Assembly: GCF_019649055.1 (NCBI RefSeq)
Contig: NW_026570278.1
Span: forward strand, 620,001-684,000
Length of the DNA: 64,000 nucleotides
Direction of reading: 5' to 3'
From: Paramacrobiotus metropolitanus
Lineage: Eukaryota; Tardigrada; Eutardigrada; Parachela; Macrobiotidae
Positions 40,284 to 63,735 of the stretch are shown here, in pieces; the first letter of the stretch is position 1, and each line of letters starts with the position of its first letter. The notes beneath the pieces are model-generated. The model saw only the letters and a list, made by a program, of their open reading frames with translations, had not been told where the DNA came from and ran no database searches. The translations under genes were made by a program, and so were the position numbers.

Positions 40284-40289
40284 GGTCTA
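40284..40289. other. 6-bp target site duplication (left)
   Basis: GGTCTA is repeated at 53,568-53,573, exactly outside the palindromic element's termini. Confidence 0.85.
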
Positions 40290-40319
40290 AGTAGTAAGGC
40301 AATAGGTCTGGCAGGGACA

Positions 40320-40480
40320 CGTGATTGGTCAGACACGCCCCTTTCTCTGATTGGTCAGACACGCCCCTTTCTCTGATTGGTCAGACACGCCCCTTTCTCT
40401 GATTGGTCAGACACGCCCTGCTTCTCTGATTGGTCAGGCACGCCCCCTTCCTGATTGGTCTGACTCCGCCCCCTTCTCTG
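40320..40480. repeat. 27-bp subterminal repeats (left end)
   Basis: About six copies of GATTGGTCAGACACGCCCCT with TTCTCT spacers, followed by a GAACCGAACCG-rich tract (about 40,486-40,530). The mirror set lies at 53,370-53,535. Such subterminal arrays are typical transposase or host-factor binding regions. Confidence 0.85.
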
Positions 40481-40617
40481 ATTGGTCGGAACCGAACCGC
40501 TCAGAACCGAACCGAGACCGGCCGAACCGTATTTTACCCCCTTTCTTTTGTTTATTTTTCCCCACCCTCTTTTATTTTGTTTTCACATGACAATGAACAA
40601 AGTTTAAGTTATACAAA

Positions 40618-41657
40618 TCAGGCCGCATGAACATACGCAGGAGTAGTAGTACAGTCTTTGACAAAAATACAATTTTGGTTAAATTTCTGATGGTCATTGT
40701 ACGGATCTCCCGGCATACACGTAATTGAACAGTTCCTCGTAATTGAACAGTTCCTCGGCTAAGGCATACACCTGCTCCTGCCCGTCCTAGTTACCCACCA
40801 GGTCGTCGGGTATGCTTGAAAATCCAGACCAAGCCCCCGCAATGGCACAAGCCATGATGCCGATGGCATCTGTGCATCCTCCGGTTAACATTGTCGCGTG
40901 GAGAGTGGATTCGAAGGAATAACTACTGCGGCGACCAATAGCAGCGCAGTAAACAGCAACAGGGACGGCTTCCAAGGGGCTAGTACCGACACCAATAGCT
41001 TTGAACAGTTTCTCCTTTGGTTCGGCACGTTGCGCATAGTCAAAACAATCATCATACGTGTATAAAATTTCTCACGTACACATTCGGGGAGAGACTTATT
41101 GCTGTACTCAACAAGAGCGGAAAGAAACTCCAGCTCGGTCAGCTGTGGATTCTTTAGAACCAGACTGATGGCATAGGCCTGCAGTTGTGCTCCAGCTGCA
41201 GCTTCATTGGAAGAGTGGGTGAGCCGAGCTACACGGTCTACAGAGAAACTCATCTGCTCCGTCCGATTGTAAAAGTACAAGGGATACGCTGTTATCCAAG
41301 TGGCAGCATTACATTCTGTTCCGCGGTTGCGGACTGTCGTAGCCGCAGCGGTCCAGTCTTTTGGGGAGAATGTTTCCAACTGGCAATAATGGCGGTCAGT
41401 TCACCAAAAGCTCGACGCTTAGTGTGGTTGTGGTAAAAGGTTTGGCTACATTGTCCTGCGGCATTGTCCATGGAAAAGAAGCCGGTATCCAGTAGAGACT
41501 TGGCGTAAGCGTGCGTTATTAAGAATTTCTCCCAGTAAGTCGAGGCCTTGCTACGCACACCCGCCAAGTTCATGTGGCAGGAGGTAGGTCGTCTCAGGGG
41601 TGTTCCGATGCATTCTCCGATCAATGCGCTTAATAAACAGCCTTTGTACTGATCCAT
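40618..41657 (-). pseudogene. ARH3-like ADP-ribosylglycohydrolase, left-arm copy, broken
   Basis: Starts at 41,657 with MDQYKGCLLSALIGECIG and is nearly identical to the right-arm gene. Lesions compared with the right copy are a one-base deletion in a C-run (near 41,365), a one-base deletion near 41,040, a TGG-to-TAG stop near 40,788, an 18-bp tandem duplication near 40,735, and a deletion of about 170 bp that removes most of the C-terminal part. The stop codon region (40,618-40,620) is shared with the right copy. Confidence 0.9.
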
Positions 41658-41693
41658 GGCGTTCAGAATTGCGAATAAATTCCTAATTCAACC

Positions 41694-41904
41694 AGCTAAG
41701 ATAGACCACGTCGTTTTCAGTATCCAAACTGGCGCTGACCCGCATTCTGTCTCGGCCTCTCATTTGACGATGGCTAATCCAAACTGGCGATGACCCACAT
41801 TCTGTTTCGTCCTCTTTTATTTGACAATGGTAATCCAAGCTGGCGCTGACCTAGATTCTTTGTTCCATAGCTAATCCAAACTGGCACTGACCCACATTCT
41901 GTCT
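41694..41904. repeat. Direct repeats upstream of ARH gene (left arm)
   Basis: Four units containing ATCCAAACTGGCGCTGACCC and CATTCTGTCTCGGCC-like words, mirror of 51,811-52,003. They lie directly upstream of the ARH start codon. Confidence 0.8.
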
Positions 41905-44900
41905 TTTTACATTGTACGAGTACTGTACTTTGTACTTATATAGACAGCACCAACAGCAAGCTGTCTGATTGAAATCCGATAGCATCCGTCAGCGTCTGGC
42001 GATGTGTTTTTTCTTAGAAAGCGCCAAGAGAAAACAATACTTGTACTTAAATGCTGCGCCGATCCGCTCCACCCAACACTGACCCTCTCACAGTACCGAC
42101 CCCCGCACCACACCGGCTCCCGCACAGCACCTGTCTCCCGCACATCACGGCACCGCAAAGGTACGGTAAACAGTACCTAACCACCATGTACAAGTACTGT
42201 ACGCATTATACTGCCACTACTCTGAAACCAATATAAATTGTAGGAGTACTGTACTTTGTACTCACCGCAGCGTACGGCAACGTACAGGTAGAGTAGACAG
42301 ACCAACCATGTACAGTATGTGATTTACCGCTGCTATGCATGCAAACAAAAAATACGAGTACGAGTACAAATATACAAATATTGTACGCCACTAGCTTCCA
42401 GGTAGGTTAGACTGAACAGACCAGCCATGTACTGCCACTACACGCAAGCAAATTTACATTGTACGAGTACTGTACTTTGCTCATATAGATAGAGCGCGCC
42501 AACGGCATGCTTTCTGATTGAAATCAGACAGCATTCGGCAGCGCGTGGTGATGTGACTTTTCTCTGGAAGTGTCAGGAGAAAACAATACTTGTGCTTACA
42601 CACTGCACCGCAGCGGTTCCAAGCACCACCCACCAGCGTTCAGATAGGGTAGACAAACCAGCCATGTACTGTATGTATTTTACTGCTACTACGCGCAAAC
42701 AAGCATACGAATACGATTACAAATATACAAATATTGTACAGGTACTGTAACTTGTACTGAAGTGGACAAAGCGCGCAAACAGCAAGATGTCTAATTAAAA
42801 TCAGATAGATTTGACTGTGAGCATGCAGTCTAAACCTATAAAACTATCATCAAACGTTGGGAACAGAATTAACTTATTTTTAATAACGCTATAATAACTT
42901 TACTTATATTTATTAAAATTCAGTACTAGGTATACATACTGGGTAGCGCAAACAACGCTGTGTATGTACCAGACGACGCAAACAATGTAAGCGTAACGCA
43001 TCGTAGGTACATATCCAATGGGAACAGCCGGGCGTCAGTGCCTTGACACAAATATTGTTCGTATATTCTCATGTAGACACTAGTAATTATTATGATTATT
43101 TTCATACCGGTAGCAGTGTTACCTTAAATTGCACTTCCGCGGAGCGAATTCAAGGAGTTTTTAAATTTATAATAAAACTGCTAATTTCTTCAATCAAAAC
43201 TCTAAAATCTGTACCGTTAACGGAGTATTTTAAAGTAAAATGAGGAGCTTTTCGGAAAAAAATTCTCATAGGTAAAGCATACAAGTAGCGACAAAACAGG
43301 TAGTTTTTTTGTAATGGAAAAAGTGAATTTTAATTTCAGATCTGAAACTACCTGTTTGTTACGCATTTATTGCCCAAATAAGCTCGAAAATCTACGTTTT
43401 ACTGTGCAATTTTACAGACTTTACTGAAAATTACACAACAGCACCGCGCACACGTTCAGTGTATACACAAGGATTATTGCAAGAGGCTTTTAACAGCTTT
43501 GATAAGTTCGCACCAACTACCGTAATATGCAGATTTACGGTTTTTATAGAATGAAGCACGCAAACGTAATGCTATCCGCCAAATGCATTTCTGCATCGAT
43601 TGTGCTGCAGTAACCAACATACTCTAATATCCTATCAGCCGTTTTGTACGGGTTTTGGGGAAAAAAAGTGAAACAAAACTTTGCATCCCCTTTCACTGAG
43701 CATGAGCCTAACGATATGGTCAGTATGGTCAGTGACAGCAGGCTATGGTGATGTAACTGGCAATGAGTCATAGCGAAGCTGTTTTAGAAAAAATAATAGT
43801 TGTACTTACACCGTCCGCGCCGGACAGCATTGGACCCAGCACCGCATGACAACGTATAGGTGGGGTAGACGAACTAACCATGTACTGTATGTATTTTGCT
43901 GCTACTATACGCCCAGACAAATGTACGGGTGCGAGTACAATATCCAAATGTGGTACGAGCAGTGTACTTTGTCTCATATGAACAGGGCGCGCCAAAACAG
44001 TATGCTGTTCTGTCTGATTAAAATCAGTCAGCATCTGTCAGCACCTGCGAGCGAGGAGCCTGTCTGTTCAGTCATGAAACGTTGGAGCAATATAAAGTTA
44101 TTTTCTGATTAACATTACAGATGAGTTTACTTGTACATATGAGCATTGAACACTAGATGTACATTGTGTTCAACACAAACAATATAGACGTACCATGCGT
44201 AACGTAGCTGCATATTCACTAGAAACAACCGAGCATCAGTACCCTGACACCTAGATTGTTCGTATATTCACATGCAGACATTAGTAATTAATATTTCCAA
44301 GCCGGTAGTCGTGTAATCTTACAATTGCACTTCCGCAGAGCAAATTAACGGAGTTTTTAAATTTATAATAAAACTCCTAAATTTTTAAAACAATAAAACT
44401 ATAAAATCTGCACCGATAACGGAGTATTTCAAAGTAAAAATTTGGAGCTTTTCGGAAAAAAACTCTCATAGGTAAAGCATACAAGTAGCGACAAAAACAG
44501 AGAGTTGTTCGTAATGTAAAAAGTGACTTTTTATTTTAAATCTAAATCTGATCGTGCGTTATGAATTTCACGTCCAAATGTTTGAAAAACCATGTGTACT
44601 ATGCAACTTTTACAGATTTCTACTGAAAGTTTCAGGTTGACAAAACAGCCATTTAATGTATGCATTGTACTGCTACTACTCGCAAACAAATAAAATATTT
44701 TTTACGAGTACTGTACTTTCCACTCATATTGACAGAGCGCGACAACAGCAAGATGTCTGACTTAAAATAGATCTGCAGTGACTGTGAGCATGCAACCTAT
44801 CTGTTCAGTTATCACCCGCACCGCTCTGTCCACCGCATCGCACTCCAGACGGTGACCAACACACTGCCGACCTCCGCGCCACACACCAGACTGGTGCCCA

Positions 44901-46744
44901 ACACCACACTACACCGCACGGCAACGTATAAATACTTCATGTATTGTACTGTCACTACTCGCAAACAAATATAAATTGTACGAGTACTCTACTTTGTACT
45001 CATATGGTCACGCGGCAACAGCCTGCTTTCTGATTGAAATCAGATAGCATCCGGCTGCGAGCATGCACCAGTCTGGTAAGTCATCGAACTTTGGTGCAGG
45101 AGCAACTTATTTTTCTAATTAAAACTCCAGATAAGTTTACTTGTAAAAATAAAAAGTCAATACTTGATGTACATGTTGCAAACAACGTAGAATTTATACT
45201 GGTCGGAGCAAACATTCTAGTCGTACCGTGCGTAAGCGTTAGTGCCTTGGAGCATCTGTTGCTCGCATATTCACAAACAGATATTAGTAATTATTACGAT
45301 TATAATGTAAAAATACCATGTATCAACTAAAAAAAGCGGTATTTGACATTTTTCTAAGTGTAATCTGGAATTACACAGGTCGATTCCATGAAAGGGCTAA
45401 GAGAAAACTACTACCTTCACCGCACCGTACCGCACTGGTTGCCGCACCGCACGGAACCACACCGGTGCCCAACACCACACTACACCGCACAGCAACTTAT
45501 AGGTAGGGTAGACAAACCAGCCATTTTCTGCAGGTATTGTACTGCAACTATTCGAAAACAATTAACATATAAATATTGTACGAGTAGTGTACTTTGCACT
45601 TATATGGACAGAGCGCGCCACAACATCCTGTCTGACTGAAATCAGATAGCATTTAACAGCCACTGTGCAGCCTGTCTATTTAGTCATCAACCTTTGGGTT
45701 AGAAAAACTTATTTTTCTGATTAAAACTACAAAATTAATTAGTTTTATTTGTACCTAAAAAATTCAATACTAGGTGTGCATACTGCAAAAAGCACAGTTT
45801 ATATACAGGCCGGCACAAGCAATGTAGACGTACCGTGATGTAGCTTCCTATCCACCGGGAGCAGACATGCGCCAGTGTCTCGGAGCATATGTTGTTTGCA
45901 TATTTACAGCAGATATCAGTAATTATTACGATTATATTCACTTACAGACACCATGCTTCAACCGCAAAAAAGAGGCATTAATGTTTTCCATGGTAATGTG
46001 TAGAATTCTACACATCGACACAAGGGCGGCTTCAGTCTCATGTTCGGGTACTGAAATGGTACCGGTACAATTCTCTAGCGGGTTATCGCTTGAGCTCAGT
46101 GTAACAGTGTGATTATCAACCATTATTGGCACTTATTATAATTTTAATGCATTAGGTAATTTTAACTGATATCTTTACATGTGCGTTAGATATCTAGTAT
46201 AGGATTTTTTTGTACACCTATGCGCGTCTCCTGAGCTAGTGTGCTTTCCCGATAAAACAAAACAACGATGGTGTTGCACAACCGTGATGCGGCACGTTTT
46301 ATTTATGAGTACATAATCAAGCGACACAAACAGCAATGTGATAAATACTCGTACAAGGATGTCCTCTGTTCTAAACATTTGATCATAACCATTGTTAGGT
46401 GCGAGTATGAGTTTGGAGTTAATGGTTTTACTACGGATCTCGTACTACGGATAATTCGTTCTACGGATAATTCCTTTTTGAAACACGTACACTTTTTCTC
46501 ACAAAATATATTATAATTTTTTTGCAGTCAAAATTTCCAGAACTGCACCCACAAACATACTTTTGTCGTACACGATATTGTAGTTTTTCGTTTGCAAAAT
46601 CGCATAGGTACTACATAGAAAACAACGTTAAACGTGAAGTTTTTCTTATCAAAAATGTGCAGTATTTTATTCAGTAAAATACTACATAAAACTCCATTAG
46701 TTTTTTGTCAAATTGGGGTCGCAAATGGTACTTTTTGAACGTAC
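41905..46744. repeat. AT-rich subrepeat region, left arm
   Basis: At least seven diverged units carry TGTACGAGTACTGTACTTTG, then CATATGGACAGAGCGCGCC, then CTGTCTGATTGAAATCAGAT (for example at about 41,915, 42,462, 42,735, 43,948, 44,702, 44,978 and 45,577). Many are followed by ACCGCACCGCAC-type stretches. The TCTGATTGAAATCAGA core is itself palindromic. No protein family was recognised; the frames of 60-90 codons in both arms are mirror copies of the same non-coding sequence. Confidence 0.75.
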
Positions 46745-47011
46745 AAATTTTGTCTCTCGGGCATCCGAAATGCACGTTAGTTAGACCACTACCAAGTACT
46801 CTGTGCGGTACATGATGAAGAGCTATATTCTCTGCTTCCTTTGTCTCCAACTGAGTTTTCCCCAATCTGCATTGCAGTATCACACTCACTCTTATAGTTC
46901 TGGTCCGGATCGATACGACATTTTTTTCATAATAAAAACCAGTGTGTAGCGTCCATACAACCACATTCATCACATTAAGTTTGCACCAATTATTTGCTAA
47001 ATTTGTAAACC
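46745..47011. other. Central spacer of the palindrome
   Basis: About 270 bp of unique sequence between the arms; the inverted repeat resumes imperfectly in its outer 10-15 bp. No terminal repeats of its own and no recognisable gene. A 126-codon minus-strand frame crosses it and the arm ends, without motifs. Confidence 0.75.
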
Positions 47012-50000
47012 GTACGTTCAAAAAGTACCATTTGCGACCCCAATTTGACAAAAAACTAATGGAGTTTTATGTAGTATTTTACTGAATAAAATACTGCACA
47101 TTTTTGATAAGAAAAACTTCACGTTTAACGTTGTTTTCTATGTAGTACCTATGCGATTTTGCAAACGAAAAACTACAATATCGTGTACGACAAAAGTATG
47201 TTTGTGGGTGCAGTTCTGGAAATTTTGACTGCAAAAAAATTATAATATATTTTGTGAGAAAAAGTGTACGTGTTTCAAAAAGGAATTATCCGTAGAACGA
47301 ATTATCCGTAGTACGAGATCCGTAGTAAAACCATTAACTCCAAACTCATACTCGCACCTAACAATGGTTATGATCAAATGTTTAGAACAGAGGACATCCT
47401 TGTACGAGTATTTATCACATTGCTGTTTGTGTCGCTTGATTATGTACTCATAAATAAAACGTGCCGCATCACGGTTGTGCAACACCATCGTTGTTTTGTT
47501 TTATCGGGAAAGCACACTAGCTCAGGAGACGCGCATAGGTGTACAAAAAAATCCTATACTAGATATCTAACGCACATGTAAAGATATCAGTTAAAATTAC
47601 CTAATGCATTAAAATTATAATAAGTGCCAATAATGGTTGATAATCACACTGTTACACTGAGCTCAAGCGATAACCCGCTACCTTGTGTCGATGTGTAGAA
47701 TTCTACACATTACCATGGAAAACATTAATGCCTCTTTTTTGCGGTTGAAGCATGGTGTCTGTAAGTGAATATAATCGTAATAATTACTGATATCTGCTGT
47801 AAATATGCAAACAACATATGCTCCGAGACACTGGCGCATGTCTGCTCCCGGTGGATAGGAAGCTACATCACGGTACGTCTACATTGCTTGTGCCGGCCTG
47901 TATATAAACTGTGCTTTTTGCAGTATGCACACCTAGTATTGAATTTTTTAGGTACAAGTAAAACTAATTAATTTTTGTAGTTTTAATCAGAAAAAATAAG
48001 TTTTTTCTAACCCAAAGGTTGATGACTAAATAGACAGGCTGCACAGTGGCTGTTAAATGCTATCTGATTTCAGTCAGACAGGATGTTGTGGCGCGCTCTG
48101 TCCATATAAGCGCAAAGTACACTACTCGTACAATATTTATATGTTAATTGTTTTCGAATAGTTGCGGTACAATACCTGCAGAAAATGGCTGGTTTGTCTA
48201 CCCTACCTATAAGTTGCTGTGCGGTGTAGTGTGGTGTTGGGCACCGGTGTGGTTCCGTGCGGTGCGGCAACCAGTGCGGTACGGTGCGGTGAAGGTAGTA
48301 GTTTTCTCTTAGCCCTTTCATGGAATCGACCTGTGTAATTCCAGATTACACTTAGAAAAATGTTAAATACCGCTTTTTTAAGTTGATACATGGTATTTTT
48401 ACGTTATTATAATCGTAATAATTACTAATATCTGTTTGTGAATATGCGAGCAACAGATGCTCCAAGGCACTAACGCTTACGCACGGTACGACTAGAATGT
48501 TTGTCTGACCAGTATAAATTCTACGTTGTTTGCAACATGTACATCAAGTATTGACTTTTTATTTTTACAAGTAAACTTATCTGGAGTTTTAATTAGAAAA
48601 ATAAGTTGCTCCTGCACCAAAGTTCGATGACTTACCAGACTGGTGCATGCTCGCAGCCGGATGCTATCTGATTTCAATCAGAAAGCAGGCTGTTGCCGCG
48701 TGACCATATGAGTACAAAGTAGAGTACTCGTACAATTTATATTTGTTTGCGAGTAGTGACAGTACAATACATGAAGTATTTATACGTTGCCGTGCGGTGT
48801 AGTGTGGTGTTGGGCACCAGTCTGGTGTGTGGCGCGGAGGTCGGCAGTGTGTTGGTCACCGTCTGGAGTGCGATGCGGTGGACAGAGCGGTGCGGGTGAT
48901 AACTGAACAGATAGGTTGCATGCTCACAGTCACTGCAGATCTATTTTAAGTCAGACATCTTGCTGTTGTCGCGCTCTGTCAATATGAGTGGAAAGTACAG
49001 TACTCGTAAAAAATATTTTATTTGTTTGCGAGTAGTAGCAGTACAATGCATACATTAAATGGCTGTTTTGTCAACCTGAAACTTTCAGTAGAAATCTGTA
49101 AAAGTTGCATAGTACACATGGTTTTTCAAACATTTGGACGTGAAATTCATAACGCACGATCAGATTTAGATTTAAAATAAAAAGTCACTTTTTACATTAC
49201 GAACAACTCTCTGTTTTTGTCGCTACTTGTATGCTTTACCTATGAGAGTTTTTTTCCGAAAAGCTCCAAATTTTACTTTGAAATACTCCGTTATCGGTGC
49301 AGATTTTATAGTTTTATTGTTTTAAAAATTTAGGAGTTTTATTATAAATTTAAAACTCCGTTAATTTGCTCTGCGGAAGTGCAATTGTAAGATTACACGA
49401 CTACCGGCTTGGAAATATTAATTACTAATGTCTGCATGTGAATATACGAACAATCTAGGTGTCAGGGTACTGATGCTCGGTTGTTTCTAGTGAATATGCA
49501 GCTACGTTACGCATGGTACGTCTATATTGTTTGTGTTGAACACAATGTACATCTAGTGTTCAATGCTCATATGTACAAGTAAACTCATCTGTAATGTTAA
49601 TCAGAAAATAACTTTATATTGCTCCAACGTTTCATGACTGAACAGACAGGCTCCTCGCTCGCAGGTGCTGACAGATGCTGACTGATTTTAATCAGACAGA
49701 ACAGCATACTGTTTTGGCGCGCCCTGTTCATATGAGACAAAGTACACTGCTCGTACCACATTTGGATATTGTACTCGCACCCGTACATTTGTCTGGGCGT
49801 ATAGTAGCAGCAAAATACATACAGTACATGGTTAGTTCGTCTACCCCACCTATACGTTGTCATGCGGTGCTGGGTCCAATGCTGTCCGGCGCGGACGGTG
49901 TAAGTACAACTATTATTTTTTCTAAAACAGCTTCGCTATGACTCATTGCCAGTTACATCACCATAGCCTGCTGTCACTGACCATACTGACCATATCGTTA

Positions 50001-51810
50001 GGCTCATGCTCAGTGAAAGGGGATGCAAAGTTTTGTTTCACTTTTTTTCCCCAAAACCCGTACAAAACGGCTGATAGGATATTAGAGTATGTTGGTTACT
50101 GCAGCACAATCGATGCAGAAATGCATTTGGCGGATAGCATTACGTTTGCGTGCTTCATTCTATAAAAACCGTAAATCTGCATATTACGGTAGTTGGTGCG
50201 AACTTATCAAAGCTGTTAAAAGCCTCTTGCAATAATCCTTGTGTATACACTGAACGTGTGCGCGGTGCTGTTGTGTAATTTTCAGTAAAAGTCTGTAAAA
50301 TTGCACAGTAAAACGTAGATTTTTCGAGCTTATTTGGGCAATAAATGCGTAACAAACAGGTAGTTTCAGATCTGAAATTAAAATTCACTTTTTCCATTAC
50401 AAAAAAACTACCTGTTTTTGTCGCTACTTGTATGCTTTACCTATGAGAATTTTTTTCCGAAAAGCTCCTCATTTTTACTTTAAAATACTCCGTTAACGGT
50501 ACAGATTTTAGAGTTTTTGATTGAAGAAATTAGCAGTTTTATTATAAATTTAAAAACTCCTTGAATTCGCTCCGCGGAAGTGCAATTTAAGGTAACACTG
50601 CTACCGGTATGAAAATAATCATAATAATTACTAGTGTCTACATGAGAATATACGAACAATATTTGTGTCAAGGCACTGACGCCCGGCTGTTCCCATTGGA
50701 TATGTACCTACGATGCGTTACGCTTACATTGTTTGCGTCGTCTGGTACATACACAGCGTTGTTTGCGCTACCCAGTATGTATACCTAGTACTGAATTTTA
50801 ATAAATATAAGTAAAGTTATTATAGCGTTATTAAAAATAAGTTAATTCTGTTCCCAACGTTTGATGATAGTTTTATAGGTTTAGACTGCATGCTCACAGT
50901 CAAATCTATCTGATTTTAATTAGACATCTTGCTGTTTGCGCGCTTTGTCCACTTCAGTACAAGTTACAGTACCTGTACAATATTTGTATATTTGTAATCG
51001 TATTCGTATGCTTGTTTGCGCGTAGTAGCAGTAAAATACATACAGTACATGGCTGGTTTGTCTACCCTATCTGAACGCTGGTGGGTGGTGCTTGGAACCG
51101 CTGCGGTGCAGTGTGTAAGCACAAGTATTGTTTTCTCCTGACACTTCCAGAGAAAAGTCACATCACCACGCGCTGCCGAATGCTGTCTGATTTCAATCAG
51201 AAAGCATGCCGTTGGCGCGCTCTATCTATATGAGAGCAAAGTACAGTACTCGTACAATGTAAATTTGCTTGCGTGTAGTGGCAGTACATGGCTGGTCTGT
51301 TCAGTCTAACCTACCTGGAAGCTAGTGGCGTACAATATTTGTATATTTGTACTCGTACTCGTATTTTTGTTTGCATGCATAGCAGCGGTAAATCACATAC
51401 TGTACATGGTTGGTCTGTCTACTCTACCTGTACGTTGCCGTACGCTGCGGTGAGTACAAAGTACAGTACTCCTACAATTTATATTGGTTTCAGAGTAGTG
51501 GCAGTATAATGCGTACAGTACTTGTACATGGTGGTTAGGTACTGTTTACCGTACCTTTGCGGTGCCGTGATGTGCGGGAGACAGGTGCTGTGCGGGAGCC
51601 GGTGTGGTGCGGGGGTCGGTACTGTGAGAGGGTCAGTGTTGGGTGGAGCGGATCGGCGCAGCATTTAAGTACAAGTATTGTTTTCTCTTGGCGCTTTCTA
51701 AGAAAAAACACATCGCCAGACGCTGACGGATGCTGTCGGATTTCAATCAGACAGCTTGCTGTTGGTGCTGTCTATATAAGTACAAAGTACAGTACTCGTA
51801 CAATGTAAAA
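47012..51810. repeat. AT-rich subrepeat region, right arm
   Basis: Mirror image of 41,905-46,744 with scattered substitutions and indels (for example the left-arm-only segment of about 50 bp is absent near 47,682). Same palindromic core words in opposite orientation. Confidence 0.8.
51769..51777 (+). promoter_or_regulatory. Possible TATA box of the right-arm ARH gene
   Basis: TATATAAGT about 285 nt before the ATG at 52,061, upstream of the four direct repeats. The distance is longer than in the Polinton genes, so an intron-free long leader or another promoter is possible. Confidence 0.35.
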
Positions 51811-52003
51811 AGACAGAATGTGGGTCAGTGCCAGTTTGGATTAGCTATGGAACAAAGAATCTAGGTCAGCGCCAGCTTGGATTACCCATTGTCAAATAAA
51901 AGAGGACGAAACAGAATGTGGGTCATCGCCAGTTTGGATTAGCCATCGTCAAATGAGAGAGGCCGAGACAGAATGCGGGTCAGCGCCAGTTTGGATACTG
52001 AAA
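51811..52003. repeat. Direct repeats upstream of ARH gene (right arm)
   Basis: Four units of about 45-70 bp: ACAGAATGTGGGTCAGTGCC followed by AGTTTGGATTAGC, with variation. They occupy the 5' flank of the ARH gene and are mirrored in the left arm. Confidence 0.85.
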
Positions 52004-52060
52004 ACGACGTGGTCTATCTTAGCTGGTTGAATTAGGAATTTATTCGCAATTCTGAACGCC

Positions 52061-53239
52061 ATGGATCAGTACAAAGGCTGTTTATTAAGCGCATTGATCG
52101 GAGAATGCATCGGAACACCCCTGAGACGACCTACCTCCTGCCACATGAACTTGGCGGGTGTGCGTAGCAAGGCCTCGACTTACTGGGAGAAATTCTTAAT
52201 AACGCACGCTTACGCCAAGTCTCTACTGGATACCGGCTTCTTTTCCATGGAGAATGCCGCACGACAATGTAGCCAAACCTTTTACCACAACCACACTAAG
52301 CGTCGAGCTTTTGGTGAACTGACCGCCATTATTGCCAGTTGGAAACATTCTCCCCCAAAAGACTGGACCGCTGCGGCTACGACAGTCCGCAACCGCGGAA
52401 CAGAATGTAATGCTGCCACTTGGATAACAGCGTTTCCCTTGTACTTTTACAATCGGACGGAGCAGATGAGTTTCTCTGTAGACCGTGTAGCTCGGCTCAC
52501 CCACTCTTCCAATGAAGCTGCAGCTGGAGCACAACTGCAGGCCTATGCCATCAGTCTGGTTCTAAAGAATCAACAGCTGACCGAGCTGGAGTTTCTTTCC
52601 GCTCTTGTTGAGTACAGCAATAAGTCTCTCCCCGAATGTGTACGTGAGAAATTTTATACACGTATGATGATTGTTTTGGACTATGCGCAACGTGCCGAAC
52701 CAAAGGAGAAACTGTTCAAAGCTATTGGTGTCGGTACTAGCCCCTTGGAAGCCGTCCCTGTTGCTGTTTACTGCGCTGCTATTGGTCGCCGCAGTAGTTA
52801 TTCCTTCGAATCCACTCTCCACGCGACAATGTTAACCGGAGGATGCACAGATGCCATCGGCATCATGGCTTGTGCCATTGCGGGGGCTTGGTCTGGATTT
52901 TCAAGCATACCCGACGACCTGGTGGGTAACTGGGACGGGCAGGAGCAGGTGTATGCCTTAGCCGAGGAACTGTTCAATTACGTCAGTAAACTTCACAACC
53001 CCGACGGGCCACTCAGTACTTTTGAGAACTGGCCACACCTCCTTCCTTCTGCAGGCGCCATGGCAAGAACGGGACTGTACTACACCGGATCTGATGATAC
53101 AGTTAAAGGTCATTACTGTCGGTTTACAATGAGCAACTGGACACCGGGAGATCCGTACAATGACCATCAGAAATTTAACCAAAATTGTATTTTTGTCAAA
53201 GACTGTACTACTACTCCTGCGTATGCTCATGCGGCCTGA
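52061..53239 (+). CDS. ARH3-like ADP-ribosylglycohydrolase, intact but atypical
   Basis: 392 codons. Family landmarks: the N-terminal DQYKGCLLSALIGECIG (usual GALIGDxxG), a central NRGTECNAATWITAFPLYFY, ARLTHSSNEAAAGAQLQA (typical LTH and gallery of small residues), and the C-terminal GGCTDAIGIMACAIAGAWSG (usual GGDTDTIxxMxGAIxGA). Family enzymes remove ADP-ribose from proteins with two Mg ions held by aspartates in a T-D-D-T motif and in the GGDTD motif. Here the region aligned with T-D-D-T reads FLITHAYAKSLL, without aspartates, and the first Asp of GGDTD is Cys. I infer a weak or dead enzyme, perhaps still binding ADP-ribose. Human ARH3 is about 360 residues, so length is normal. The frame is free of stops, unlike the left-arm copy. 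Confidence 0.85.
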   Translation: MDQYKGCLLSALIGECIGTPLRRPTSCHMNLAGVRSKASTYWEKFLITHAYAKSLLDTGFFSMENAARQCSQTFYHNHTKRRAFGELTAIIASWKHSPPKDWTAAATTVRNRGTECNAATWITAFPLYFYNRTEQMSFSVDRVARLTHSSNEAAAGAQLQAYAISLVLKNQQLTELEFLSALVEYSNKSLPECVREKFYTRMMIVLDYAQRAEPKEKLFKAIGVGTSPLEAVPVAVYCAAIGRRSSYSFESTLHATMLTGGCTDAIGIMACAIAGAWSGFSSIPDDLVGNWDGQEQVYALAEELFNYVSKLHNPDGPLSTFENWPHLLPSAGAMARTGLYYTGSDDTVKGHYCRFTMSNWTPGDPYNDHQKFNQNCIFVKDCTTTPAYAHAA

Positions 53240-53369
53240 TTTGTTTTACTTAAACTTTGTTCATTGTCATGTGAAAACAAAATAAAAGAGGGTGGGGAAA
53301 AATAAACAAAAGAAAGGGGGTAAAATACGGTTCGGCCGGTCTCGGTTCGGTTCTGAGCGGTTCGGTTCC

Positions 53370-53535
53370 GACCAATCAGAGAAGGGGGTGGAGTCAGACC
53401 AATCAGGAAGGGGGCGTGCCTGACCAATCAGAGAAGGGGGGCGTGTCTGACCAATCAGAGAAAGGGGCGTGTTTGACGAATCAGAGAAAGGGGCGTGTCT
53501 GACCAATCAGAGAAAGGGGCGTGTCTGACCAATCA
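53370..53535. repeat. 27-bp subterminal repeats (right end)
   Basis: Mirror of 40,320-40,480: about six copies of GGCGTGTCTGACCAATCAGA with small variants, next to the GGTTCGGTTCTGAGCGGTTC tract. Confidence 0.85.
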
Positions 53536-53567
53536 CGTGTCCCTGCCAGACCTATTGCCTTACTACT

Positions 53568-53573
53568 GGTCTA
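53568..53573. other. 6-bp target site duplication (right)
   Basis: GGTCTA, identical to 40,284-40,289. Confidence 0.85.
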
Positions 53574-53681
53574 CGATATTCGTATAAGTAATACAAAAGT
53601 TTATTATTTTTATTTTAAGTTTTCAACATCTATTTTTTATTCAGTTTGTTTAAGGTCATTCAATTAATATTTTTCTGTTAG

Positions 53682-54618
53682 CTGAACGATATCGAATCTG
53701 TTGTAGCGGACTACTTTGACTCAATTATATATCAATTTCCGGTTGATTCGAGCATCGCTACGGAGAACATCTGTATGACGGAAGGTCACAGTGAAGCACA
53801 AGATGAGACGCCACCACTTCCAGTACAGAATTATTGGGCGGACAACCACGGTAATCGTACAACAATCTGATATTTTTTTTGAATAAATTATTATTTTGTT
53901 TTATTTAAACTCATTTGTTAGTTACCTGATGCACTAAAAATCGTGCGTTTAATGTTTGCTTGTAGGTCACGAAGCCGTATGCTACGATTACAGTGCGCCG
54001 GCGACTGTAACCATTTTGGATGAAGGAGTAGTACCAGGAGGATGGGTTTCCGAGGACATTGCGATGACGCTGCTGCCACCGGTTGCACCTAAGTGGATAC
54101 GTACGAACCGTGAAACGAGCACAAATAAACTGGTGCCAGCCCCCTTGCGCCACGTCCCGTGGGACGTCAGAGCGAAGAATTTGCTGATGTATTTTGGTGG
54201 TTTCATCGACAGTGACGGATGGTTTAGCCATGCAATGCTTGTGTTTTTCACTAAGGAAAGTATTTTGGAAATTACGCGACAAGAACTACAGGTGCTATTG
54301 AAATACCTTTTTGCGGGTGGTTGGCACAAAGACGTTAAGTATGTTGTGGACTGTACTAACGGGAGACAGGTTCCTGTGCCACCGTATCGCCGGATCAGTC
54401 CAACACTGCTGGGGTGGCATCGGGATTTTGTAAATGGTAGTAAGTCGCGCCATAAGGCAGCGACTACATATCTGACGTTGACACGCGTCTCGCATTTTAA
54501 CACGTATGAGGGGTGTGTGCACCTTAATCTGCATGCGATTGAATATTTACAGTCTCACAAAGATAGATTTGCTGACCTGGTTCCAGATGATGTGGAATTT
54601 CCCGAATTAGTTACCTAA
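53682..54618 (+). CDS. Unrecognised Polinton protein, 3' exons
   Basis: Exon 53,682-53,850 follows an acceptor (TTTTTCTGTTAG) and reads LNDIESVVADYFDSIIYQFP. After a 115-nt GT-AG intron, exon 53,966-54,618 continues with HEAVCYDYSAPATVTILDEG and ends in LVPDDVEFPELVT and a stop. Phases fit (1 nt + 2 nt). The upstream exons are probably those at 39,810-40,254, now 13 kb away because of the palindromic insertion. The protein is mixed alpha/beta by eye, with Trp-rich patches (GGFIDSDGWFSHAMLVFF). I recognise no family; its place beside the polymerase suggests a conserved Polinton accessory protein. Confidence 0.6.
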
Positions 54619-54934
54619 AACTGTTGGTTGTCTTGTTGAATTCGAATGCTAAAAAAAACAAGCGAAATGCAAAAAAAAATTTTATTTTGCGCTTATCTTG
54701 CGTTGGACAAATAAGAAATATTACTGGATACTACTAGTACAAGTTGTAATGGTTTCTGGTCATCATTAGTACTAAATGCAGTACAAGCGAGTACAAGTTA
54801 TAATCGTTTTCAGTGATCTTTATATATACAATTTAAGTTGCGATAGTACGAATTGTAACTGTGTTCCGTGATCCATACGTACAAGATACCGTTGTTTGAA
54901 AATTACGGGCTAATTAGGAAAATATTTGCGGTAG
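54619..54934. promoter_or_regulatory. Intergenic region with degenerate promoter repeats
   Basis: After a poly-A-rich 3' end, words such as TTTTCAGTGATCTT and TTCCGTGATCCATACGTACAA (54,805-54,895) resemble diverged units of the GGATCACTGA array at 59,948-60,344. Confidence 0.5.
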
Positions 54935-54941
54935 TATAAAA
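54935..54941 (+). promoter_or_regulatory. TATA box of the DNA polymerase gene
   Basis: TATAAAA, 55 nt before the ATG at 54,990; a short upstream ORF starts at 54,970 and overlaps the start. Confidence 0.55.
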
Positions 54942-54989
54942 CGCGTAAAACGCAACAGTTATTTTCTCAATGGATAAATTTGCGAAACG

Positions 54990-57900
54990 ATGGATAATTT
55001 GAATATGGATGCACCGTATGCAGTAGAAGATTTTATTAGCGTTGAATGTACCGGTGAGAAGTTTTCCCATAAATACTGGCTTCATTTTAAGTGCTTTTCG
55101 GTAAAAGTTTCGGAGCTTGAAAAAGTGCCCTTTTCCGATATTCCAGTGGTCATTACCCAGATTATCGAGAACATACTGGAGACACTTTTAGAAGATGTTG
55201 GACCAGACGAAATGGTTCGCATGCGCCTGGACTCAAATTCACTGAGCCGACCGATATGGACACCGCCTATCAAACGATCACAGTTAAATGTGACCAGATG
55301 GATGGCAGAAGTCGCTCGGGTGTTAAACTCTTATGAGGAATTCGTCATCGATGACTCCTTTGAAATTTCCGTACAGTATACTGATATTCCGAAAGGAACA
55401 TGCAACCGCGATGTTCCTGCACTCTTGCGACGAAGATTAGAAAAGATGAAATCGGTGGTTGTTATAAAAAATTCCGACCAAATTTGTCTAGCCCGGGCTT
55501 TGGTTATTGGTAAAGCCCACGCGGACGGAAACAAAAACCTTTACCGGAAGCTGCTGCGAGGAAAGAAACTGCAAACAAGAGAAGCTCAGTGCCTCGTCCA
55601 ACGAGCTGGGTTTAAAGAGCAGGACTTTAATCTACGTCATCTACACAAATTTCAAGAAATCCTGCCCCAGTACCAAATCGTTGTGGTCAGTGTCGATCAT
55701 GGAAATCTCATTGTTTTCAGCGGTGCTGCCCAAGATAAAAAAATCGTCCTACTGCATCACGGCCGGCATTTCGATTTGCTCAACTCCTTGCCGGCATTCT
55801 TTTGCAAAAGGTATTAGTGTTTTTCTTGCAATAAAGGATACTCTAACCGAGGGGATCATCGCTGCTCTCAAACGTGCCGAGCTTGTCTCCGGTCCTCCTG
55901 TCCGTCCGATGCGACCTCTATGGTTCACTGTGACGATTGCAATCGGGACTTTTTTGGTCAAGATTGCTTCGCGTAGCATAAAAAAGCTGGTACCAAAGCC
56001 CAACCATCACGCAAGAGCATCTGCAGTATGGTGTTTGTCTGCAAGAAATGCCTGCGGATAGTCTCCATGCGGCAAAGCAAAAATGAAAATACTCGTCAAT
56101 GCGGTGAAAGCTTTTGCAAAACGTGTAGAATTCATGCTCTACCACAACAGCATCAGTGCTACATGAGACCACACAAGGTGGATGCCGATGAACTGGAACT
56201 GAATGAAAACGCTGACTTTTTGTATTTTGATTTTGAGACGTATGTCTCGGAAAACGGAAATTTAATACCTAACCTTGCGGTGAGTCAAAATGTAACATAT
56301 TCAAACCACGGACCGTTGGTAACACAAGTGGTGATTACAGGTTGTACAGGACGATAGCGGTAATGAGTGGGTATTTCCTGAGGATGACGTCCCGCTACAT
56401 GGTGACATAACGAATGAATTATGCACATTTCTGTTCCAAGAGCAACACCGCGACCATTTTATCATTGCCCATAATTTCAAGGTAATAACAGTTTTTTTTT
56501 AATTTTTGTTTTTTGTTCTGTTAAGACTTTTTTTTTCATCAGCCTAATAAAATAACTTTTTTTTTCACGCAGTCTTTTGATGGATACTTCATTCTCAACT
56601 GGCTGCTTAAAAACGACATCGTACCGAAAGTTATTCTGAATGGTGGGAAGATTTTACAATTGGATGTGCCTCAGCTGAATATCCGATTCCGGGATAGTAT
56701 AAACTACAACCCTCAAAGCCTTGCAAAATGGCCGGCTACGTTTGGTCTACCAGAAATCAGTAAAGGAACGTTCCCGCACCGGTTTAACCGGAAAGAAAAT
56801 TGGAATCAAATAGTTCCCTTTCCCTCAGTGGACGAGTACGGGTTTCAAGGAATGAACAAAAAATCAAAGGATTCCTTTTTGCGTTGGTATGAGAAGGAGA
56901 AGCAGGAAAAAAAACCAGTTTGATTTCCGGAAAGAATTTGTGGAATATTGTAAAATGGATGTTACGGTTCTTCGAATTTGCTGTCAGCAATTCCGAAAGC
57001 TGTTCCAAGAAATAAGCAAAGGATTATGTCCGTTTGTTTCGTCGTTAACTATTGCGGGATTGTGTAATCGGTATTGGCGATCCTTCATGCTGAAGCCTGA
57101 GCAGATAGGTCTGTTACCGCATGGTCTAAATGCCCGCAATCGGCATCAGTCGGAAAAAGCTAAGAAATGGTTATCGTGGATGGAAGAAGAAAGTAACCGC
57201 ACTATCCAGTCTGTGATAAACGGGTCTGAATACAGGATTGGACCTTAATACGTTGACGGTTACAGGGAGGACATCAACATGGTCTATGAATTTTATGGCT
57301 GTAGGTTTCACGGCTGCCCGAAATGTGTAGCGCCGACGACGACCCACCCGTTTCGGGATATTTCAATGTCGGACGTTTACAAGGAAACTCTTGACCGAGA
57401 AGATTATTTGCGAGGACAGGGCTACAATGTGACCTGTATTTGGGAACATGAATATGACGACGAGTTGAAATCCAACCCGGATATGAAAGCCTATGTGTCG
57501 CAGCTTCAGTTTATGCAACGACTTGATCCCCGGGATGCTTTCTACGGAGGAAGAACGAATGCCGTGAAGTTATTCCATCAAGTCGTTGGAGACGAAAAGA
57601 TTTGCTACTTTGACGTCAACAGCGAATACCCCTTCGTCAATAAAAACCGGCGTTACCCTGTAGGACATCCTACCATAATTACAAAGAATTTTAGCGATAT
57701 CCAGTCCTATTTCGGCCTGGTTGTGTGCACGGTATTACCACCGGGGGATTTACAATTTCCTGTTCTACCGTATCGCTGTGGGGGCAAATTAACCTTTCCC
57801 TTGTGCAGAACGTGCATGGAAAAACACCAAAACACCAAATGTCATCATCCCGATTGCGATCGAACAATCACTGGAACATGGTGTACACCCGAAATCCAAA

Positions 57901-59043
57901 AGGCGCTGGACAACGGATACAGTATTGTAAAAATATACGAAGTTTGGCATTTCGATAAGTATGAAGATCGCCTTTTTGAAAACTACATCAACCAGTTCCT
58001 TAAACTGAAAACCGAGTCCAGCGGATGGCCGGTGGAAATATGTAGCGAAGCGGAGAAGCGTAAATACATTGCGGACTTTAAAGAGCACGAAAACGTGGAC
58101 TTGGACTACGACAAAGTTAAACCAAATCCTGGTTTAAGAGCACTGGCGAAATTGTGCTTGAACAGGTATTCACGCAGTCTTTTATTCCGTTTTTCAACCT
58201 TTTTCTAAAAATTCTTCTGGTTCCAGTTTTTGGGGCCGTTTCGGAATGCAAGATAACAAGCTGAATACCATGTATATCAGCGAACCAGAAAAATTTTACA
58301 ACATGCTTTTGTCCGGAAAACATCACGTTCATTCGTGGGACCTCTTTACTGACGACATTGTCCAGATAACCTATACCACCGAAAGCGGATTCGTTGATCG
58401 CAACCCTCACACCAACGTGATTTTAGCAGCGTAAGAAAATAATACTTTTAGAAATAAAAGGCTAAGGTGAAAACCTTTTTTCCATGCTTTAGGTTTACAA
58501 CATGTTGGGCTCGACTGCATCTACTCAAGTTCATGGAAATGGTGGGAGGCCGCTTATTATATTTTGATACAGGTTAGAAGCGTCTGTAATTTTAAAGGTT
58601 AAAGTCTCACGAATTAGGCTTTATTTAAATTTATAGATTCTATCTTTTTCGTGACTCGACCAAACCTTGTGGACCCTCCGACTGGAATATTTCTTGGCGA
58701 CCTGACTAACGAGTTGAAGCCTGGGCAACACGTCGGTCAGTTTGTAAGCCTTGGCGCCAAATCCTACGCTTACGTTACCAACGATGGAGAAAGCGTTGTC
58801 AAAGTCAAAGGATTCACCATCAATGGGCGCACAAGCGAACAAGTTAATTATAAAACCATGCTGGACATGTTGGCAAACCGTAGTATTATAGATGTCGACT
58901 ATCCCGATATTTTGCAGCGAAATAAGTCTACTATGACGATTCGCAACACCAGTGTGGTTAAACGATTTCAAGTGACGTATGACAAACGCCGTATTGTTGA
59001 CGATCAGTATAATACGGTACCGTTTGGATATGTTCTGGCTTAA
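54990..59043 (+). pseudogene. polB: Protein-primed DNA polymerase B (Polinton), 4 introns, 3 stops, 2 frameshifts
   Basis: Exonuclease motifs: FDFETYVSE (Exo I), HNFK/SFDGYF across an intron (Exo II), YCKMDVTVLR (Exo III). Polymerase motifs: YFDVNSEYPF (A), KLCLN/SFWGRFG across an intron (B), YFDT/DSIFF across an intron (C). Introns by GT-AG signal and phase: 56,482-56,572, 58,166-58,226, 58,431-58,492, 58,573-58,636. Breaks: in-frame TAG at 55,815 and 55,974, TAA at 57,246, a frame change near 56,340-56,355, and a frame change at an A8 run (56,907-56,914). The zinc-finger-like segment (CFSC, HRC, CRAC, CDDC) lies between the two TAGs. Polintons replicate with such polymerases. As sequenced the gene cannot make a full product unless some breaks are errors or are bypassed. 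Confidence 0.9.
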
Positions 59044-59404
59044 ACCAGCGATTTATTAAATTTATGAATCATTTCCCGAACTTCCCGGACAGCATCAGGC
59101 AGCTGATCACAGCTTTTCAATCCTAGGAAGTTGCATTTACCAGATGGAAATAGCACAGCACGCCCAACTTTAAGTTTGATTGCTAAACCACTAAACAACT
59201 CAGGCGTGTATTCCAGATGAAAATACATGCTAAAATTTTCGATATGCAACCGGTCTGGAAAAGCATGGTTAGCTACAACATTGCAAGAAGTCCTGAAAAT
59301 TTTTGTGGTGTATACTGTGCCATTGGTACAAGGTTTTCAATCTTGCACAGGTCCAGGGTAGTGTTTAAGTCCGCAAAGGCAACAACATTGGTGATTCTGG
59401 GCAT
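59040..59404 (-). pseudogene. TATA-binding-protein-like (TBP) gene, first lobe truncated
   Basis: From the ATG at 59,404: PRITNVVAFADLNTTLDL and QYTPQKFSGL match the start of the first TBP lobe (TBP: N-x-V-x-x-x-x-L, then Y-x-P-x-x-F). The frame then breaks near 59,280. In the next frame the second lobe is nearly complete: NVVANHAFPDRLHIENF, EYTPELFSGLAIKL, AVLFPSGKCNFLGLKS, AVREVREMIHKF. The F-x-S-G-K and Y-x-P-E-L-F-x-G-L words are hallmark TBP. The remainder of lobe 1 (about 40 residues) is missing. The gene is convergent with the polymerase and overlaps its stop codon by a few bases, which ties it to the Polinton. TBP binds TATA DNA to start transcription. Calling it broken depends on the frame change being real. 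Confidence 0.72.
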
Positions 59405-59840
59405 CGCAGTGGTACCACAAGGTGAACCGTACAGCTTTACGGAGGGTCGACACCGGAAGCGAAGTAAGTTTATGATACGGCGGGCAGCCCAAAGATTCGA
59501 GATTCCTGACTTCTGGCAAAAAATGCTCCAGCAGTTGGCACTTTTCCAAGCCTTTGGCAAAGAATCGCACTTGGCTGGGTCGTCCAATTCTTCGAAAAAT
59601 ATCTTCCAACGCACAAGTTACCTGGTTGTGTCGGTACTCTCCTTCCGTATACCACAGCAGTCCGTGCGAATGGCGAGCTTGACTTTTCAGAGCGGGTATG
59701 TGCTTGCTGGCGTGTCGAGGAAGCGTGAAGGTGTACAGGTTTTGTTCGTCTTTGTCCGGACAGTAGAAAGCCAGCTGTTTGATGTACTTGGTTCCATTGA
59801 TTACGAACCAATCGGTGTCCAGTATGCATGGTGCTGCCAT
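59337..59840 (-). CDS. Exonuclease-fold-like protein of unknown role
   Basis: From the ATG at 59,840: MAAPCILDTDWFVINGTKYI, QLAFYCPDKDEQNLYTFTLP, SHGLLWYTEGEY, FFAKGLEKCQLLEHFLPEVR and NLESLGCPPYHKL. This pattern (D-x-x-x-F near the start, KG-x-EK-x-x-L, and N-L-E-x-L-G-C-P) is one I recall from unannotated invertebrate proteins with a possible DEDD-exonuclease-like fold; the acidic catalytic set looks incomplete. The recognisable part ends near 59,450; the rest of the frame overlaps the TBP-like start in another frame. It reads away from the palindromic repeat array, opposite to the PC4-like gene. Confidence 0.5.
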   Translation of the reverse strand: MAAPCILDTDWFVINGTKYIKQLAFYCPDKDEQNLYTFTLPRHASKHIPALKSQARHSHGLLWYTEGEYRHNQVTCALEDIFRRIGRPSQVRFFAKGLEKCQLLEHFLPEVRNLESLGCPPYHKLTSLPVSTLRKAVRFTLWYHCDAQNHQCCCLCGLKHYPGPVQD

Positions 59841-59947
59841 TTGGTCTATCGGAGTACTAGTCAAAATTCCAGTTCACTGATAACGTACACAATGGCAAAA
59901 GTCTCGTATCTGAATGTACTAAAGACCTTGCATTTGTATCAGGTCGA

Positions 59948-60344
59948 GGATCACTGAAGTCGGTGATCCATATCGTACAAGGGATCACTGAACTCGGTGA
60001 TCCCTGTCGTACAAGATATTACTGAACTCAGTGATCCCTGTCGTACAAGAGATCACTGAACTCAGTGATCCATATCGTACAAGGGATCACCGAACTCAGT
60101 GATCCCTGTCGTACAAGAGATTACTGAACTCAGTGATCCCTGTCGTACAAGGGATCACTGAACTCAGTGATCCATATCGTACAAGGGATCACTGAACTCG
60201 GTGATCCCGGTCGTACAAGGGATCACTAAACTCAGTGATCCATATCGTACAAGGGATCACTGAAGTCAGTGATCCATATCGTACAAGGGATCACTGAACT
60301 CCGTGATCCATGTACTTTGCGGGATCACCAAAAACAGTGATCCG
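59948..60344. promoter_or_regulatory. 12-unit array of a 34-bp palindromic repeat between divergent genes
   Basis: Each unit has GGGATCACTGAACTCAGTGA (an inverted repeat of about 10 bp with a 2-3-nt centre) plus a spacer ATATCGTACAA or CTGTCGTACAA. Twelve units in head-to-tail order lie between the minus-strand gene at 59,840 and the plus-strand gene at 60,476. Variation is mostly in the spacer and at the left end of the palindrome. Similar copies lie at 39,625-39,672 and degenerate ones near 54,810-54,890. Likely an operator or enhancer, or an origin-like element. Confidence 0.85.
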
Positions 60345-60397
60345 TGTACTCGGAATTACCGATATCGATGTTGCACTAAGTGAGCACCGAAGATCGC

Positions 60398-63333: not shown

Positions 63334-63335
63334 TT

Positions 63336-63734: not shown

Positions 63735-63735
63735 T

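What the first reader, a model, noticed from the sequence alone, without database searches (positions are those of the whole stretch)
40290..53567. A 13.3-kb near-perfect palindrome is a mobile element carrying ARH-type genes
Seen: two arms of about 6.5 kb in inverted orientation, about 270-bp unique centre, exact mirror termini (AGTAGTAAGG ... CCTTACTACT), a 6-bp duplication GGTCTA on both sides, and different lesions in the two arms. Known: few eukaryotic elements consist almost wholly of inverted arms, and such palindromes are unstable. Inference: an undescribed fold-back-like element family with a cargo enzyme. It has no transposase, so it must be mobilised by another element.
Basis: partly seen in the sequence, partly recalled or inferred. 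Interest (0 to 1): 0.9.

Follow-up and report, generated by a model that had tools for sequence, protein, structure and literature searches.

The report
Palindromic Polinton derivative in a tardigrade
In a tardigrade genome, a 13-kb mirror-image DNA element turns out to be two back-to-back copies of one end of a virus-like transposon (a Polinton), apparently moved by that transposon's enzymes and carrying an unusual gene; sister palindromes sit elsewhere in the same genome.

Summary
Window 40290-53567 is a near-perfect palindrome: arms 99.5% alike, 267-bp centre, 6-bp duplication GGTCTA. Two paralogous empty sites exist in the same genome. The host is very probably the tardigrade Paramacrobiotus metropolitanus. 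The element is not a stand-alone fold-back family. Its first 19 bases are identical to those of a 17.9-kb Polinton (Maverick) that codes for PolB, integrase, an ATPase and protease- and capsid-like proteins. Its arms contain two inverted copies of that element's right end, with the cargo gene and relics of two further genes. Sister palindromes lie at C32 (15.5 kb), C37 (20.8 kb) and C114 (10.7 kb). C32 and C37 share one centre, so a palindrome was amplified as such. The cargo fuses an ADP-ribosylglycohydrolase domain to a BIR (inhibitor-of-apoptosis) domain. Metal-binding residues are replaced in all 11 copies aligned, yet 9 of 12 comparisons give dN/dS 0.09-0.17. Best explanation: a satellite of Polintons, formed by snap-back copying of one end during protein-primed replication (inferred) and inserted by Polinton integrase in trans (strongly supported). 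The literature listings that I searched named no palindromic Polinton. Reads were not available.

The parts
40284..40289 (.). Left target-site duplication GGTCTA
   Evidence: Sequence; single exact copy in the empty site C36
40290..46744 (+). Left arm of the palindrome
   Evidence: Mirrors the right arm at 6367 of 6401 aligned letters
40322..40487 (+). Subterminal array of a 26-bp repeat (6.3 copies)
40621..41657 (-). Broken copy of the ARH-BIR gene (deletions and frame changes)
43100..43506 (+). Relics of two Polinton genes: end of the TBP-like gene and start of the ATPase gene
   Evidence: tblastn with C60 ORFs
46745..47011 (.). Unique centre (loop) of the palindrome; 78% match in the relative C23:272430-279721
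   Evidence: no Pfam match for the ORF across it
47012..53567 (-). Right arm of the palindrome
50203..50614 (-). Mirror relics of the TBP-like and ATPase genes, in the order and orientation of C60
51811..53567 (+). Outer right arm, 90.7% identical to the right end of the full-length Polinton C60 (704749-706566)
52061..53239 (+). Open ARH-BIR gene, 392 aa
   Evidence: Pfam PF03747 (1.5e-32) and PF00653 (6e-14)
53370..53535 (-). Mirror array of the 26-bp subterminal repeat
53568..53573 (.). Right target-site duplication GGTCTA
53574..64000 (.). Flanking Polinton of another lineage into which the palindrome inserted: PolB pieces 55095-58806 (+), protease-like 61508-62008 (-), F54H12.2-like (capsid-like) 61996-63333 (-); it runs on to the left of 40284

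Best explanation
The 13.3-kb palindrome is a non-autonomous, satellite-like derivative of a Polinton/Maverick (an integrating, virus-like element) in the tardigrade Paramacrobiotus metropolitanus. It is an inverted dimer of the Polinton's right end. It was inserted as a whole by a Polinton integrase acting in trans, into another Polinton, with a 6-bp duplication (strongly supported). The inverted dimer most likely arose by snap-back copying: during protein-primed, strand-displacement replication a strand carrying the right end folded back, primed its own copying, and gave a molecule with a right end on each side of a short loop (inferred). Such molecules keep both ends needed for replication and integration and spread with a helper Polinton's proteins (inferred). 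At least one such form was amplified as a palindrome (supported by the C32/C37 pair).
For: Termini identical over 19 bases to those of the full-length Polinton C60, which codes for PolB, rve integrase with chromodomain, an A32-like ATPase and a TBP-like protein. Perfect 6-bp duplications in 9 of 12 elements whose two flanks I read. Empty sites at C36 and C9. Both arms carry the same C60 end (ARH-BIR, then TBP-like and ATPase relics in the C60 order), and nothing of the PolB side apart from the short terminal repeat and one 61-bp low-complexity hit. Terminal repeats of the four full-length relatives are only 40 to about 355 bp, so long arms are not a general trait of the helpers. Sister palindromes C32, C37 and C114. 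C32 and C37 share a 126-bp centre with one substitution at different sites. Axes of C58 and C32/C37 differ. AAV snapback genomes (PMC8235507, passages) show that one-ended self-complementary genomes with a loop form and replicate with helper functions.
Against: No protein-primed replication, helper dependence or extrachromosomal form is shown here. No single-arm progenitor running through the loop was found, so snap-back is not distinguished from terminal-repeat growth or fold-back repair. Much of the inner arm has no clear counterpart in C60. C37 has flanks matching at only 4 of 6 bases and C1:1838049-1843204 has no duplication. Four one-base indels in the C32/C37 arms follow a mirrored pattern that simple copying of one palindrome does not predict. 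The reversed control pattern also gave 6 places against 12 for the real one, at two mismatches.
Confidence: 0.7

Rival explanations
1. Terminal-repeat growth plus internal deletion: a Polinton first acquired multi-kb terminal inverted repeats (by conversion or panhandle copying), then lost its core, leaving arms and a short centre.
For: C22 and C5 have arms of several kb around large centres, a possible intermediate. Arm-to-arm homogenisation in C32 and C37 is compatible.
Against: The four full-length PolB-bearing relatives with matching ends have terminal repeats of 40 to about 355 bp. No C60 protein other than a weak integrase match was found in the C22 core, which holds retrotransposon-like ORFs, and none in the C5 core.
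Confidence: 0.22
2. Independent fold-back element (FB/Galileo-like) that only shares ends and a gene with Polintons by capture.
For: Long, internally repetitive inverted arms resemble fold-back elements; Galileo is described so in an abstract (PMC3573991, listing).
Against: Ends, 6-bp duplication and gene order are those of the Polinton C60. Other duplication lengths are known for FB and Galileo (recalled).
Confidence: 0.03
3. Chromosomal fold-back repair made the inverted duplication of an already integrated Polinton end, and the product was later mobilised.
For: Fold-back inversions occur in yeast and cancer (PMC7467729, PMC10622511; start of abstracts in the listing).
Against: The palindromes end exactly at element termini with 6-bp duplications, not in flanking DNA, and appear to have formed more than once at different axes.
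Confidence: 0.1
4. Assembly artefact: a read folded on itself was assembled as a palindrome.
For: Long palindromes are a known artefact of some long-read libraries (recalled); no reads could be checked.
Against: The arms differ by 34 substitutions and 20 gap events. The palindrome stops exactly at 6-bp duplications with non-mirrored flanks, has empty sites, and sister palindromes lie elsewhere with their own duplications.
Confidence: 0.03

Closest known systems
Polinton/Maverick elements (polintoviruses, adintovirus-like)
   Same: Termini, 6-bp duplication, cargo gene and relics of the ATPase and TBP-like genes shared with the full-length Polinton C60 in the same genome.
   Different: No PolB, integrase, protease or capsid gene inside; two right ends instead of a right and a left; arms of about 6.5 kb instead of terminal repeats of 40 to about 355 bp.
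Snapback (self-complementary) defective genomes of AAV
   Same: One genome end duplicated in inverted orientation around a loop; described as replicating with helper functions (PMC8235507, passages).
   Different: AAV uses another replication mode and is a different virus; here the molecules are integrated in the germline with target duplications and have been amplified; replication is not shown.
Drosophila Foldback and Galileo elements
   Same: Long, internally repetitive inverted arms (Galileo from the abstract of PMC3573991 in the listing).
   Different: Ends, 6-bp duplication and genes are those of a Polinton; Galileo is placed with P elements in that abstract.
ARH3 (ADP-ribosylhydrolase) and IAP/BIR proteins
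   Same: The ARH domain aligns with human ARH3 over residues 2-306; the BIR domain aligns with NAIP and XIAP chains.
   Different: The two are fused, and most of the metal-binding residues of ARH3 are substituted in all 11 copies aligned.

Membership tests
Polinton/Maverick (autonomous element) | 6-bp target-site duplication | tested here: met
   GGTCTA on both sides, one copy in the empty site C36
Polinton/Maverick (autonomous element) | Terminal inverted repeats shared with an element that codes for an rve integrase | tested here: met
   First 19 bases identical at both ends of C58 and C60; C60 integrase PF00665 with chromodomain
Polinton/Maverick (autonomous element) | Own protein-primed PolB, integrase, protease, ATPase and capsid genes | tested here: not met
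   Inside 40290-53567 only ARH-BIR, the end of the TBP-like and the start of the ATPase gene were matched by 14 C60/window queries
Snap-back derivative of a protein-primed genome | Inverted dimer of one end of the parent, other end absent | tested here: met
   Both arms match the ARH-BIR end of C60; no PolB-end match except the terminal repeat and a 61-bp low-complexity hit
Snap-back derivative of a protein-primed genome | Short unique loop continuing in a single-arm parent | tested here: inconclusive
   267-bp loop found, and the loop plus one inner arm in C23b, but whether C23b is a parent or a deletion product is open
Snap-back derivative of a protein-primed genome | Replication by a helper with protein-capped ends | not testable with these tools
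   Needs DNA from animals or cells
Foldback/Galileo elements | Long inverted arms made of internal repeats | tested here: met
   Direct repeat families within the arms
Foldback/Galileo elements | Target duplication of FB/Galileo length (9 or 7 bp, recalled) | tested here: not met
   6 bp here
ARH hydrolase (ARH3-like) | ARH fold by sequence | tested here: met
   PF03747, E 1.5e-32; ARH3 chains up to 1.4e-15
ARH hydrolase (ARH3-like) | Metal-binding residues (T76, D77, D78, D314, D316, T317 of ARH3; roles and numbers recalled) | tested here: not met
   T-D-D reads x-E-K and the first Asp of D-x-D is replaced in 11 of 11 copies; the second Asp is kept in 11 of 11; the following Thr is replaced in 11 of 11

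The most novel reading that the evidence does not exclude
The palindromes are germline-fixed snap-back satellites of an animal Polinton virus: self-complementary genomes that keep two replication/integration ends and a selected gene (a non-hydrolytic ARH fused to BIR), replicate and integrate with helper Polinton proteins, and can insert into other Polintons.
Probability: 0.35. Interest if true: 0.85.

Novelty: new variant of a known kind. Interest (0 to 1): 0.72.

Why it matters
Polintons are held to replicate by protein-primed synthesis, but this is inferred mainly from their genes. Inverted dimers of one end, each with a short loop and a clean 6-bp insertion site, are the footprint one would expect of snap-back errors of such replication. 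If the reading is right, helper-satellite relations and the replication mode of animal Polintons become testable from genome sequence. The conserved ARH-BIR fusion, apparently without hydrolase residues but under purifying selection, points to a viral-type protein acting on ADP-ribose signalling or cell death.

Tried and rejected
Rejected or disfavoured: an independent fold-back family (ends, duplication and gene order are Polinton's), an assembly artefact (arm differences, duplications, empty sites, sister copies), and an ordinary chromosomal inversion (6-bp duplications at the exact ends).

Led nowhere: Rfam, 0 matches at gathering threshold; tRNAs, 0; viral contigs with the ARH-BIR protein, 0; Pfam for the ORF across the centre, 0; NCBIfam for the capsid-like, ATPase and protease-like proteins, 0, with only sub-cut-off matches for the integrase and the ARH-BIR protein. 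In the protein database the ARH-BIR query found 2 proteins and a six-copy alignment found 3. All 3 are labelled P. metropolitanus and 2 of the 3 have both domains. That search reaches only relatives sharing short words, so it does not show that the fusion is unique to this species.

Literature: Polinton+palindrom (44 papers, 20 listed), tardigrade+Maverick (4), Polinton+terminal inverted repeat+non-autonomous (40, 15 listed), Polinton+ADP-ribosylglycohydrolase (0), adintovirus+inhibitor of apoptosis (0), adenovirus/palindromic/snap-back mixed query (174, 12 listed), Maverick+foldback (10), Polinton+inhibitor of apoptosis (2), Paramacrobiotus metropolitanus genome assembly (8), a mixed snapback query (42, 10 listed). 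I read the listings, plus passages of PMC11071193, PMC8235507, PMC6431247 and PMC11191345. No listing named a palindromic Polinton; papers that I did not open, or that are not held, may.
Full report
OBSERVATION. Window 40290-53567 is a near-perfect palindrome of 13,278 bp: arms 40290-46744 and 47012-53567 around a 267-bp unique centre. Outside the centre 6367 of 6401 aligned letters match, with 34 mismatches and 20 gap events totalling 209 bases. The longest exactly mirrored run is 934 bp. Both ends abut GGTCTA.

HOST. The window is C58:620001-684000 of a 169.8-Mb genome in 533 contigs. Protein records labelled Paramacrobiotus metropolitanus lie on contigs whose lengths equal contigs here: 1,432,182 (C23), 941,505 (C58), 1,283,027 (C32), 930,367 (C60) and 4,484,719 (C1). 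So the host is very probably this tardigrade (inference from contig lengths). A paper on this species mentions nanopore reads spanning genes (PMC11191345, passages); whether G000 is that assembly is not shown.

INSERTION. The left and right flanks have close paralogues at C9 and C36 (87-93%). There they are contiguous: in C36 around one exact GGTCTA, in C9 with the expected 6-base overlap but not the exact word. A third paralogue of the right flank, C274, lies at a contig start and cannot be read to the left. The flank itself is another Polinton: PolB in pieces, protease-like, capsid-like and a further ORF match those of C60, the main pieces at about 27-44% identity. The capsid-like protein has 100 database relatives, several named F54H12.2-like; that this name marks Polinton capsids is recalled. 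The palindrome therefore inserted into a Polinton of a different lineage. The relative C23b (C23:272430-279721) is likewise flanked on both sides by pieces matching PolB. Of seven palindromic or long-armed elements (C58, C23b, C32, C37, C114, C22, C5) these two have matches to Polinton genes in the flanks, but most of the other flanks held were short (about 0.2-1.4 kb), so no preference is claimed.

WHAT IT IS. A pattern search with the first 19 bases (up to two mismatches) gave 12 places; the reversed control pattern gave 6, so single hits mean little. Ten of the 12 pair up as two inward-facing ends: C58 (the palindrome), C60, C7, C23a (C23:165712-182036) and C78. C60:688695-706566 (17,872 bp, GATACC on both sides) codes for PolB, a BIR-BIR-RING protein, an rve integrase with chromodomain, an A32-like ATPase (just under Pfam's cut-off) and a TBP-like protein. 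Its protease-like and capsid-like genes have no Pfam match; they are named by resemblance (recalled) and match those of the window's flanking Polinton. It has one ARH-BIR gene, at its right end. PolB also lies inside C7, C23a and C78, with ARH-BIR at the opposite end. The terminal repeats of these four are short: 232 bp (C60), up to about 355 bp (C7), 40 bp (C23a) and 72 bp (C78).

ARMS. The outer 1.8 kb of each arm is the ARH-BIR end of C60 (90.7% for the right arm). Further in lie the last 23 residues of the TBP-like ORF and about the first 70 of the ATPase ORF, in the C60 order and orientation. Much of the rest is non-coding repeats without a clear counterpart in C60. Of the PolB side of C60 nothing matched except the terminal repeat and one 61-bp low-complexity hit. 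The element is thus an inverted dimer of one Polinton end.

SISTERS. C32:91440-106972 (15,533 bp; CACACG on both sides) has arms 98.4-99.8% alike in the parts held and a 126-bp centre; the middle of its arms was not fetched in full, mirrored hits there are. C37:526129-546921 (20,793 bp) has a 126-bp centre, arms 97.6-99.9% alike, and a duplicated block in the right arm; its flanks CATGGA/CATCAA match at 4 of 6 bases. C114:284360-295043 (10,684 bp; ACCGTC on both sides) has arms 97.0-99.6% alike, about 0.8 kb present in one arm only, and an 889-bp centre. C517 shows inner arms of about 1 kb with an 878-bp centre on a 12.6-kb contig. C22 (ATTTCA) and C5 (GATCTG) have arms of several kb and large centres; that of C22 holds retrotransposon-like ORFs, judged by eye and by a weak integrase match. 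Of 12 elements with both flanks read, 9 have perfect 6-bp duplications (C58, C60, C23a, C78, C32, C23b, C114, C22, C5). C7 has 5 of 6, C37 4 of 6, and C1:1838049-1843204 none. A chance perfect match would be about 1 in 4096 per element.

AMPLIFIED AS A PALINDROME. C32 and C37 share the 126-bp centre with one substitution, at different sites. In a four-way alignment of about 1.85 kb of inner arm, 7 substitutions split by arm (left with left, right with right), all within about 285 bp of the centre; 7 split by element, all further out; none is mirrored; 22 are private to one arm, 20 of them to the right arm of C37. Neighbouring sites may be single events, and four one-base indels follow the mirrored pattern, so I use this as qualitative support. 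It fits one ancestral palindrome with imperfect inner arms, copied to two places, with arm-to-arm homogenisation further out. In C517 and C23b the shared loop is present but an inner arm beside it is missing; centre deletions, which stabilise palindromes (recalled), would leave this. The axes of C58 and of C32/C37 differ: C37 runs about 3 kb further in beyond the last match to C58, and the two loops do not match each other. This suggests at least two palindrome formations.

MECHANISM. Shown: end sequence, duplication length, empty sites, helper-type genes in siblings, one-end inverted dimer. Strongly supported: insertion by Polinton integrase in trans. Inferred: snap-back of a displaced strand in protein-primed replication as the origin. 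The review PMC6431247 (passages) states that Polintons encode a protein-primed PolB and a retroviral-like integrase. AAV snapback genomes (PMC8235507, passages) show that self-complementary genomes of one end, some with a loop, form and replicate with helper functions, though by another replication mode. Chromosomal fold-back repair is an alternative source of inverted duplications (PMC7467729 and PMC10622511, starts of abstracts).

CARGO. The gene fuses an ADP-ribosylglycohydrolase domain (E 1.5e-32) with a BIR domain (6e-14). Against ARH3 the T-D-D stretch reads x-E-K (one acid kept as Glu), the first Asp of D-x-D and the Thr after it are replaced, and the second Asp is kept, in 11 of 11 copies aligned, one of them only 36% identical. 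Residue roles and numbers are recalled. Of 12 pairwise comparisons, 9 give dN/dS 0.09-0.17 (the 0.09 at a saturated dS of 2.6), the near-identical pair C7/C6 gives 0.74, and two with C13 could not be computed. In this window one arm keeps an open frame and the other is broken; in C32 too one copy is open and the other lies in pieces. The BIR zinc site of the window's copy is incomplete; copies with a complete site exist. So the protein family is probably a binder rather than a hydrolase (inference).

NOVELTY. My searches (listings read, four papers in passages) showed no palindromic or snap-back Polinton and no ARH-BIR fusion in one. I rate it a new variant of a known kind.

Noticed in passing
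L060:4711-5256 (C60:702710-703255): The full-length Polinton C60 carries a TATA-binding-protein-like gene (PF00352, 1.4e-19, two stretches).
   Followed up: no
L059:6679-7494 (C60:695678-696493): C60 also carries a BIR-BIR-RING, IAP-like gene besides ARH-BIR.
   Followed up: no
C13:230395-231567 (-) and C13:243615-244784 (+): Two diverged ARH-BIR relatives (36% identity) lie in inverted orientation about 12 kb apart; possibly another Polinton family with mirrored ends.
   Followed up: partly
C23:272430-279721: A 7.3-kb relative with 1.6-kb terminal repeats and TTTACT on both sides is flanked by PolB pieces of another Polinton.
   Followed up: partly
window 59948-60313: 34-bp tandem repeat (10.8 copies) in the flanking Polinton, with related repeats in C9, C238 and C274.
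   Followed up: no
window 13799-21437: Large ORFs that look like a Gypsy-type LTR retrotransposon (gag and pol, by eye; weak integrase match).
   Followed up: no
window 8082-8925 and 31276-32119: A 42-bp tandem array at the left has an inverted relative about 23 kb away (about 790 bp, 80%).
   Followed up: no
window 6543-7187: ORF with a Ulp1-type peptidase match (PF02902, 9.9e-5) left of the finding.
   Followed up: no
   Followed up: no
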